From: Catenuloplanes indicus
GTDB taxonomy: Bacteria; Actinomycetota; Actinomycetes; Mycobacteriales; Micromonosporaceae
Assembly (NCBI RefSeq): GCF_030813715.1
Contig: NZ_JAUSUZ010000001.1
Location: forward strand, 1,240,001-1,304,000
Reading direction: 5' to 3'
Length of the DNA stretch: 64,000 nt
This document shows, piece after piece, positions 19,212-21,138 of the stretch. A program made the translations under genes and the position numbers. Under the pieces are notes generated by a model, which ran no database searches, was not told where the DNA came from, and saw only the letters and a list, made by a program, of their open reading frames with translations. The first letter of the stretch is position 1. The number at the start of each line of letters is the position of its first letter.

Positions 19212-19474
19212 GGCGGTTCCTCCCAGATGGGCGCGATTCGTGTCGGCAGCGTTCCCATCGGCCGGGCCGTCAGCGGCTCAAGGATTTACCGCGTGCCCGC
19301 GCGGCGACGAGGCCGCACCAGCGGGAAAACCGGTTGCGGGCGTACGCCGGTGTTCGTGATCATCGTGGGCATGACGTACTGACGGACCCTCTCTGTGACG
19401 GCCCCCCGTGGCGTAGCGCCCGGGGGGAGGCCGCCTGTCCGCGTGTCTCCAGATCTTCGTGAAGTGGGAACTCC

Positions 19475-20554
19475 TTGTCTCAGCACGCCAGTGTGTCCGT
19501 TTTTGCGTCCCCGTCGAGCTGGATCGAGTCGGATGCGCTCGATCAGTGCCACCAGGTGGCCGCGCTCGACGGGATGATCCATGTCGCCGCCATGCCGGAC
19601 CTGCATCCCGGCAAGGGGGCACCGATCGGCGCGGCGATGTCGTCGCGCGTGCTCTACCCGTTCCTGGTGGGCTCGGACATCGGGTGCGGGATCGCGGTGT
19701 TCCCGATCCGGATCAAGCGCCCGGTCGCGGAGCGGCTGGCCGCGCGGTTCCCGGACCTGGACCGGCCGGTCGACCCGGCCGGGATCGACACCGACATTCC
19801 CGCCGGGTACGCCGAGCAGCTCGGCACGGTCGGCCGCGGCAACCACTTCGTGGAGCTGGCCCGGGTGCACGCGGTGCACGACGACGCGCACGCGGCGCGG
19901 CTCGGCCTGGACCGCAACGACCTGGTGCTGATCGTGCACAGCGGTTCGCGCGGCCTGGGCGAGCGGATCCTGCGCGCGCACACCGAGGTGCACGGCGCCG
20001 GCCCGGCCGCGGACGTCGGCGCCTACCTGTCCGCGCACGACGAGGCGGTGCGCTGGGGCTCGCTGAACCGGCGGCTGATGGCCGCACGGGTCGCGGACGC
20101 GCTGGGCGCGGCCGCGGAGGACCCGATCGTGGACGAGTGCCACAACTCGGTGACCGTCGTGGACGGCGCCTACCTGCACCGCAAGGGCGCGGCGAACGGC
20201 GACGGCCGGGACGTGCTGGTCGCCGGAACCCGCGGCACGCCGTCGTTCCTGGTGGCGGCGCACGCGGGCGCGGACGCGAACTACTCGGTGGCGCACGGCG
20301 CGGGCCGCAAGATGTCCCGGGCGGACGCGCTGCGCCGCGGCAAGGCGAAGCACACCGTGGAGGAGCTGCGGCGCACGCCGGTCGGGTCGTACGTGGTGTG
20401 CGGCGACCGGCAGCTGTTGTTCGAGGAGGCGCCGACCGCGTACAAGAAGATCGAGCGGGTGATCGACGACCTCGTGGAGTTCAAGCTGGCCACGCCGGTG
20501 GTCAGCACCCACCCGGTGGTCACCTACAAGACCGCGGACAAGGCACGCCGATGA
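19475..20554 (+). CDS. rtcB: RtcB-family RNA ligase, release-factor-H-coupled type
   Basis: A 359-residue RtcB protein that should join RNA 2',3'-cyclic phosphate (or 3'-phosphate) and 5'-OH ends using GTP and Mn2+. Metal and nucleotide motifs are present: DLHPGKGAPIG, SDIGCGIAV (metal-binding Cys), GRGNHFVEL, HSGSRGLGE, and the guanylylated histidine in AHGAGRK. The protein is shorter than housekeeping RtcB (about 400-480 residues) and fits the PrfH-linked subfamily. The start is TTG 19475 after a weak GGGA; no earlier in-frame start is better. Its stop overlaps the prfH start (ATGA at 20551-20554), so the two are translationally coupled. No RtcA or RtcR is nearby. Confidence 0.93.
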   Translation: MSQHASVSVFASPSSWIESDALDQCHQVAALDGMIHVAAMPDLHPGKGAPIGAAMSSRVLYPFLVGSDIGCGIAVFPIRIKRPVAERLAARFPDLDRPVDPAGIDTDIPAGYAEQLGTVGRGNHFVELARVHAVHDDAHAARLGLDRNDLVLIVHSGSRGLGERILRAHTEVHGAGPAADVGAYLSAHDEAVRWGSLNRRLMAARVADALGAAAEDPIVDECHNSVTVVDGAYLHRKGAANGDGRDVLVAGTRGTPSFLVAAHAGADANYSVAHGAGRKMSRADALRRGKAKHTVEELRRTPVGSYVVCGDRQLLFEEAPTAYKKIERVIDDLVEFKLATPVVSTHPVVTYKTADKARR

Positions 20555-21138
20555 ACCTGCTGATCTCGGCCGGGCGCGGCCCGGTGGAGTGCACGTGGGC
20601 GCTGCCCCGGCTGGTGCGCCGGCTGGAGGCGGAGGCCACGCGGCGCGGTGTGACCGTGACCCGGGTCGAGGAGGTGCCCGGCGACCGGCCGGGCACGTAC
20701 CGGTCGATCCTGCTGTCCATCGACGACGCGGCGTTCGCGGCCACCTGGACCGGCACGCTGTGCTGGCAGGCGCCGTCCCCGTTCCGGTCCACGAGGCGCA
20801 AGAACTGGTACGTGATCGCCGCGCCGGTCACGCTCGGCGTCCCAAAAACCGCCTTCGACGAGGCGGACGTGGAGATCGTGCCGATCCGCACCGGTGGGCC
20901 CGGCGGCCAGCACCGCAACAAGGTCAGCTCGTCCGTGCGCGCCACGCACCGGCCGACCGGTCTGGTCGTCGTCGTGGACACCGAGCGCGGCTTCGGGCTG
21001 AACCGCGCGCTGGCGCTGCGCCGGCTGCGGGACCGGCTCCGGGCCGGTGACGTCGCGGCCGGCGAGCGGCTGAAGACCCAGCGGTGGGAGGTGCACGACG
21101 ACCTGGTCCGCGGCGACCCGGTCCGTACCGAGAGCTGA
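20551..21138 (+). CDS. prfH: Peptide chain release factor homologue PrfH (RF-H)
   Basis: A 195-residue release-factor-like protein. The peptidyl-tRNA hydrolysis loop is intact (RTGGPGGQHRNKVSSSV; GGQ near residue 115) and is followed by the conserved VRATHRPTGL stretch. The stop-codon recognition domain of RF1/RF2 (SPF/PxT) is missing, which matches the PrfH family of about 200 residues. The PrfH family is known from linkage with RtcB. Published work on E. coli homologues indicates that PrfH releases peptides from ribosomes whose decoding-centre RNA has been cut, while RtcB reseals the rRNA. Here the gene overlaps rtcB by 4 bp, so the pair should act together. Confidence 0.93.
   Translation: MNLLISAGRGPVECTWALPRLVRRLEAEATRRGVTVTRVEEVPGDRPGTYRSILLSIDDAAFAATWTGTLCWQAPSPFRSTRRKNWYVIAAPVTLGVPKTAFDEADVEIVPIRTGGPGGQHRNKVSSSVRATHRPTGLVVVVDTERGFGLNRALALRRLRDRLRAGDVAAGERLKTQRWEVHDDLVRGDPVRTES

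What the first reader, a model, noticed from the sequence alone, without database searches (positions are those of the whole stretch)
19475..21138. RtcB-PrfH operon: RNA repair coupled to a release-factor homologue
An RtcB ligase with all metal and guanylylation motifs overlaps by 4 bp a 195-residue PrfH with an intact GGQ loop but no codon-recognition domain. In proteobacteria this pair is reported to rescue ribosomes with a cut decoding centre and to reseal the 16S RNA. In a filamentous-type actinomycete the trigger is unknown; likely sources are rRNA-cutting toxins of neighbours. No RtcR-type regulator is present, so control must differ.
Basis: partly seen in the sequence, partly recalled or inferred. 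Interest (0 to 1): 0.78.

Follow-up and report, generated by a model that had tools for sequence, protein, structure and literature searches.

The report
Ribosome-repair operon behind tiny upstream ORF
The window holds a known pair of genes thought to rescue and reseal ribosomes cut by toxins, and in front of it lies a previously unreported, strongly conserved three-codon reading frame that probably senses stuck ribosomes and switches the repair genes on.

Summary
The rtcB2-prfH pair is really there (rtcB2 19475-20554, prfH 20551-21138, 4-bp ATGA overlap) and is a known module: NCBIfam release_rtcB and, marginally, PrfH. PrfH structures are solved (7sa4, 9mor), and protection against colicin E3 is shown in E. 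coli. Coupling is strong but not universal: of 201 family genomes, 80 have both genes, 28 RtcB2 alone, 2 PrfH alone.

The new result is upstream. In 102 of 111 distinct operons from two actinobacterial families, a promoter places an ATG 30-32 nt after its -35 element. It opens a minimal ORF (ATG-NNN-NNN-stop; here ATG-ACG-TAC-TGA, 19371-19382). Variants keep start, frame and stop. The exact element occurs in 62 of 201 genomes, always at this locus, also before solo rtcB2. Seven of nine proteobacterial lineages carry a different, Shine-Dalgarno-led 13-16-codon uORF there (0.14 expected). I infer that ribosomes stalled on the uORF release rtcB2-prfH expression. Supporting helices are clear in one leader class, weak in the window's genus. 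Nothing was tested at the bench.

The parts
19325..19339 (+). -35 region GAAAA...TTGCGG (A-tract 19325-19329, hexamer 19334-19339)
   Evidence: Consensus GAAAAnCGnTTGCC in 102 leaders, fixed 30-32 nt before the uORF ATG
19358..19363 (+). -10 element (GATCAT; conserved A at -12 and T at -8 from the ATG)
   Evidence: Column counts A 82/102 and T 82/102; places the start of transcription at or beside the ATG
19370..19474 (+). predicted 5' leader of the rtcB2-prfH mRNA
   Evidence: Promoter geometry; no Rfam family
19371..19382 (+). minimal uORF ATG-ACG-TAC-TGA (M-T-Y-stop), probably leaderless, UGA-C stop context
   Evidence: Identical in 5/5 Catenuloplanes genomes; ATG-NNN-NNN-stop in 101 of 102 leaders, one 5-codon variant; stops TGA 99, TAA 2, TAG 1; unique in own genome with 0-1 mismatches
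19381..19387 (+). GACGGAC box, predicted to pair with 19495-19501; uORF bases 19373-19378 pair with 19504-19509
   Evidence: RNAalifold of 5 Catenuloplanes leaders; invariant, so no covariation; fold z-score only -1.1
19461..19469 (+). weak Shine-Dalgarno region of rtcB2
   Evidence: Aligned with GAAGAGAGCGTCC(TTG) of relatives
19475..20554 (+). rtcB2, RNA ligase of the release_rtcB family
   Evidence: TIGR03073 and PRK09588 above cut-off; metal and guanylylation motifs
20551..20554 (+). ATGA stop-start overlap of rtcB2 and prfH
   Evidence: RTGA overlap in 110 of 111 distinct loci with full-length RtcB2
20551..21138 (+). prfH, peptide chain release factor H (domain 1 absent; codon-recognition superdomain and GGQ domain present)
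   Evidence: PDB PrfH 9mor and 7sa4 best matches; TIGR03072 165.3 bits, cut-off 166.65
20902..20910 (+). GGQ motif of PrfH
   Evidence: Sequence; invariant columns G118 G119 Q120

Best explanation
A known two-gene ribosome rescue-and-repair operon, controlled in cis by translation of a minimal upstream ORF. Transcription starts at or next to the uORF ATG, so 70S ribosomes load on a leaderless AUG, read two more codons and terminate at a weak UGA-C. The uORF RNA can otherwise pair with the rtcB2 ribosome-binding or early coding region and hold it shut. When ribosomes are damaged in the decoding centre or otherwise stalled, they sit on the uORF, keep the inhibitory helix open, and RtcB2 plus (by the overlap) PrfH are made. 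PrfH then frees damaged ribosomes and RtcB2 reseals the RNA, which ends induction. Shown by comparison: operon, promoter geometry, conserved uORF, locus specificity, helix in one leader class. Inferred: transcription start, translation of the uORF, induction by stalling, damaged ribosomes as the stimulus.
For: Element found without a prior motif as the top k-mers upstream of rtcB2. 102 of 111 distinct operons have ATG 30-32 nt after TTGC(C) and a frame of 4 codons incl. stop (101) or 5 (1); other ATGs in the same regions meet a stop that early in 49/390. Departures from TGA are TAA or TAG; codons 2 and 3 vary (MTY, MTF, MML, MRL, MTL), so peptide identity is not what is kept; length variants differ by whole codons. 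Exact 16-mer in 62/201 genomes, every one at this locus; reversed control 1 hit. Same leader in front of solo rtcB2. In TTC-type leaders GACGUUC pairs with GAGCGUC/GAACGUC beside the rtcB2 start: helix of 7 bp or more in 26/34 TTC vs 5/36 TAC leaders tested against the TTC uORF. Proteobacterial operons carry unrelated SD-led 13-16-codon uORFs in 7/9 lineages, expected 0.14. Leaderless RTG translation is robust in mycobacteria (PMC4633059); E. coli toiL-topAI works by this logic (PMC12121999).
Against: No transcript-start, ribosome-profiling or reporter data. The uORF:SD helix is absent in TAC leaders, including the window's genus, where a different predicted helix is invariant and the fold is not exceptional (z -1.1). 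TTC and TAC classes are partly clade-structured. Three operons lack the uORF (L071, L072, L113). The peptide is too short for sequence-specific arrest, so a general stall must be assumed.
Confidence: 0.6

Rival explanations
1. The conserved block is a DNA operator overlapping the transcription start, bound by an unknown regulator; the ORF reading is incidental (TGACG occurs twice, 8 bp apart).
For: High base-level conservation incl. the bases after the stop (CGGAC) and the base before ATG; position fits a +1 operator; TGACG direct repeat.
Against: Changes keep ATG, frame and a stop (TAA and TAG replace TGA; whole-codon length changes); the first TGACG is degenerate in Streptosporangiaceae; proteobacterial operons have unrelated uORFs in the same place; no linked regulator gene is conserved.
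Confidence: 0.2
2. The uORF is translated but only dampens or buffers rtcB2 expression (constitutive low expression, no damage sensing).
For: Helix support is missing in TAC leaders; peptide not conserved.
Against: Element kept with great fidelity over two families and also in front of solo rtcB2; helix retained in TTC leaders; unrelated uORFs recur in proteobacteria.
Confidence: 0.2
3. Ordinary rtcB2-prfH pair with nothing unusual in control; the first reader's finding is simply a further member of a known module.
For: Family matches and literature (PMC1586002, PMC6514570, PMC9223846).
Against: The upstream element is specific to this locus and unexplained by this reading.
Confidence: 0.12
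4. The leader is a decoy or antisense of the 16S decoding helix h44 and senses free or cut 16S RNA by pairing.
For: CAUGACG...UGACGG resembles the complement of the 16S stretch CCGUCACGUCACG with a 3-nt insertion.
Against: Own 16S is CCCGTCACGTCACGAAAG, so pairing has a mismatch; Nonomuraea leaders change to CATGATG or CATGAGG while 16S is identical.
Confidence: 0.03

Closest known systems
RtcB2-PrfH (RFH-RtcB) operon of E. coli and other bacteria
   Same: Both proteins, order, 4-bp stop-start overlap, sporadic distribution, presence on plasmids (PMC1586002, PMC6514570, PMC9223846)
   Different: PrfH is divergent (just under the NCBIfam cut-off); promoter plus 3-codon uORF unreported in the papers held; about a quarter of RtcB2 genomes in the family lack PrfH
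toiL-topAI uORF attenuator of E. coli (PMC12121999)
   Same: Predicted logic: uORF RNA pairs with the downstream ribosome-binding site, stalled ribosomes open it
   Different: Here the uORF is 3 codons plus stop, leaderless by prediction, and the output is a ribosome-repair operon; not experimentally tested
whiB7 uORF leader and leaderless uORFs of actinobacteria
   Same: Upstream ORF senses translation stress in actinobacteria; leaderless starts common (PMC4633059)
   Different: Unrelated sequence; output is RNA ligase plus release factor instead of a transcription factor; much shorter uORF
RtcR/sigma-54 control of rtcBA
   Same: Controls an RtcB-type RNA repair operon
   Different: No RtcR in this genome; RtcR is known for rtcBA, not for rtcB2-prfH (PMC12606134)

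Membership tests
RtcB2-PrfH operon | RtcB of the release_rtcB/PRK09588 type over the curated cut-off | tested here: met
   316.1 vs 271.8 and 460.1 vs 407 bits
RtcB2-PrfH operon | PrfH over the TIGR03072 equivalog cut-off | tested here: inconclusive
   165.3 vs 166.65 bits; closest solved relatives are PrfH by a wide margin; 74 of 82 family PrfHs exceed the cut-off
RtcB2-PrfH operon | Adjacent genes with overlapping stop and start | tested here: met
   ATGA at 20551-20554; RTGA in 110 of 111 distinct loci
RtcB2-PrfH operon | GGQ motif, domain 1 missing, codon-recognition superdomain kept | tested here: met
RtcB2-PrfH operon | Peptide release on cut ribosomes and ligation of 16S RNA | not testable with these tools
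   Needs biochemistry; shown for E. coli proteins only (PMC9223846)
uORF translation attenuator (toiL-like) | Conserved short upstream reading frame with start and stop under selection | tested here: met
   (comparative only)
uORF translation attenuator (toiL-like) | uORF RNA pairs with the downstream ribosome-binding region | tested here: inconclusive
   Met in TTC leaders, not in TAC leaders; alternative helix in the window's genus unsupported by covariation
uORF translation attenuator (toiL-like) | Induction by translation stress that needs the uORF | not testable with these tools
   Reporter and ribosome profiling needed
Leaderless transcript | Transcription start at the A of ATG | tested here: inconclusive
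   Fixed -35/-10 geometry points to it; no start-site data

The most novel reading that the evidence does not exclude
A three-codon leaderless uORF is a direct sensor of ribosomes damaged in the decoding centre: cut ribosomes can still start on the leaderless AUG but cannot read or terminate, and their stalling switches on the operon that frees and reseals them. Independent gain of unrelated leader ORFs in proteobacteria would make stall-sensing the general rule for RtcB2 operons across phyla.
Probability: 0.35. Interest if true: 0.85.

Novelty: new variant of a known kind. Interest (0 to 1): 0.66.

Why it matters
How rtcB2-prfH is switched on, and by what, was not found in the papers held. 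A conserved minimal uORF in front of it in two actinobacterial families, and unrelated uORFs in front of it in proteobacteria, suggest that the ribosome itself is the sensor: the machine to be repaired controls the repair genes. It gives a cheap reporter for finding the natural trigger, and is one of the shortest candidate regulatory ORFs known to me.

Tried and rejected
(1) Ribotoxin or immunity genes near the operon or common in the family: flanking genes are not conserved between genera, E3-type domain in 2/201 and Ntox21 in 7/201 genomes, none in the genus. (2) RtcR: absent. (3) Pairing of the leader with 16S h44: rejected for lack of match and covariation. (4) A common fold for all leaders: RNAalifold finds the uORF:SD helix in TTC leaders only, nothing in TAC leaders, little in Streptosporangiaceae. 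(5) Known RNA family: none in Rfam for the window leader or the E. coli leader. (6) PADLOC: no model matches. (7) Wider Actinomycetota: five hits at 133-140 bits carry no RtcB2 and look like RF2, not PrfH. (8) E. coli-Proteus leader structure: hairpins seen by eye were not returned by RNAalifold on two sequences, so not claimed.

Full report
Observation. rtcB2 runs 19475-20554 from a TTG and prfH 20551-21138, sharing ATGA. RtcB2 passes both NCBIfam models of the PrfH-linked ligase; PrfH is 1.4 bits under the TIGR03072 cut-off, but its nearest solved relatives are the PrfH chains 9mor and 7sa4 (E 4e-36 and 2e-30), then RF2 at 1e-13. PrfH aligns with RF2 from residue 115 on, i.e. it lacks the first domain, not the codon-recognition one; Baranov et al. 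(PMC1586002) and Burroughs and Aravind (PMC6514570) say the same of the family.

Distribution and coupling. In 201 genomes of the same family (Micromonosporaceae by the named loci) PrfH scores are bimodal (150 bits and up against 115 and down); 82 have PrfH, 108 have RtcB2 and 80 have both. The two PrfH-only genomes keep a remnant of rtcB2 or its promoter (L065; G162). Twenty-eight genomes have RtcB2 alone. The RTGA overlap is present in 110 of 111 distinct loci with full-length RtcB2, from Micromonosporaceae and Streptosporangiaceae. Flanking genes differ between genera, and even inside the genus C. japonicus has other neighbours, as expected of a module that moves. It is on plasmids in enterobacteria and alphaproteobacteria and covers at least 80% of the query in about half of E. 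coli genomes (2684 of 5426). Both genes are under purifying selection in the genus.

The upstream element. Aligning the 5' regions of five Catenuloplanes operons showed a 20-bp block identical in all, even where the surroundings are unrelated. A k-mer count over 111 distinct operons returned the same block as the commonest words. Aligned on it, the regions show an A-tract, TTGCC, 17-18 nt, a -10 element with A at -12 and T at -8, and then ATG. The ATG lies 30-32 nt after the -35 pentamer in 102 of 111 operons and opens a frame ATG-NNN-NNN-stop in 101 of them, with one codon more in the other. The stop is TGA in 99, TAA in 2 and TAG in 1; C follows in 85. Codon 2 is ACG, AGG or ATG, codon 3 TAC, TTC or CTC in nearly all. 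L050, L060, L089 and L108 have recognisable variants; L071, L072 and L113 have lost the uORF; L042 and L141 show none. In the background of the same regions 49 of 390 ATGs meet a stop that early. Related sequences are not independent, so the weight rests on the pattern of change: start, frame and stop are kept while codons in between vary.

Specificity. The exact 16-mer CATGACGTWCTGACGG occurs in 62 of 201 genomes, once each; 61 sit within 400 nt of rtcB2 and the last is in front of prfH in the genome that lost rtcB2. The reversed pattern gave one hit. Twelve of the 62 are genomes with rtcB2 but no prfH, so the leader belongs to the ligase. In the window's genome the next best copy has two mismatches.

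Structure. In TTC leaders the uORF bases GACGUUC are complementary to GAGCGUC or GAACGUC between the Shine-Dalgarno sequence and the TTG start of rtcB2; six of the seven pairs form in at least 26 of 27 sequences and the seventh, where U-G and U-A alternate, in 25. A helix of 7 bp or more is found in 26 of 34 TTC leaders, against 5 of 36 when the same regions of TAC leaders are tested with the TTC uORF; within Micromonospora it is 7 of 10 against 3 of 17. L087, with AGG, has CCTC where others have CGTC. In TAC leaders, including the window, this helix is absent. In Catenuloplanes the uORF and the bases after its stop are predicted to pair with rtcB2 codons at 19495-19509 in the consensus, but without covariation and with a fold z-score of -1.1. 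So the uORF is well supported, the way it acts less so.

Proteobacteria. The rtcB2-prfH operons of E. coli, Proteus, Klebsiella, Methylosinus, Tritonibacter, Shinella and Rhizobium each have a Shine-Dalgarno-led ORF of 13-16 codons roughly 110-210 nt upstream (E. coli MTNPLSMTLCRPFQD, Proteus MTTTNMNTLCGQSQK); Skermanella and Novosphingobium have none. Seven of nine against 0.14 expected from first-order random sequence. The two Methylosinus copies differ at two positions in the ORF, both synonymous. The sequences are unrelated to the actinobacterial uORF, which looks like independent gain of the same kind of control.

Mechanism. The closest worked example is toiL-topAI, where a hairpin between the uORF and the ribosome-binding site is opened by stalled ribosomes (PMC12121999). 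Leaderless RTG starts are common and efficient in mycobacteria (PMC4633059). Colicin E3 cuts 16S RNA between A1493 and G1494 in the decoding centre and leaves ends that RtcB can join, and rtcB2-prfH protects E. coli (PMC9223846). From this I infer that cut or otherwise stuck ribosomes on the uORF open the message. Shown here: gene identity, conservation, locus specificity, helix in one class. Inferred: transcription start, uORF translation, induction, nature of the stimulus. That UGA followed by C is a weak stop is general knowledge, not tested here. No paper in the held library links a uORF or leader peptide to prfH or rtcB2.

Verdict. The new part is a conserved minimal uORF as its likely switch, which answers 'control must differ' with a testable candidate.

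Noticed in passing
L136 and L046 (between rtcB2 and prfH): In Actinoplanes flavus (L136) and genome G029 (L046) about 600 bp or more separate rtcB2 and prfH; in L136 this holds a further open frame that starts in the ATGA of rtcB2 and ends near the prfH start.
   Followed up: partly
L065:7800-8020 (locus turned so that prfH is on +): rtcB2 reduced to a short remnant (VAHGAGSKMSRADALRRG) directly before an intact prfH, while a relative with the same flanks (L069) has the full pair.
   Followed up: partly
L001, L002: The window's genome holds two further RtcB paralogues; one lies in a 1042-aa open frame and best matches NCBIfam 'intein-containing RtcB'.
   Followed up: no
L196 and L200: In Shinella a second RtcB family gene lies directly upstream of rtcB2-prfH.
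   Followed up: no
L192: In Skermanella the operon is near a polynucleotide kinase-phosphatase (RNA repair) and an AAA ATPase plus nuclease pair.
   Followed up: no
L191: In Klebsiella a conjugative IncC plasmid carries rtcB2-prfH between qnrA6/HNH genes and sul1.
   Followed up: no
window 19475: rtcB2 is predicted to start with TTG in 95 of 102 leaders, an unusual degree of conservation of a weak start codon.
   Followed up: no
window 19370-19387: CAUGACG...UGACGG is nearly complementary to the 16S decoding-helix strand CCGUCACGUCACG with a 3-nt insertion; not supported by covariation.
   Followed up: yes
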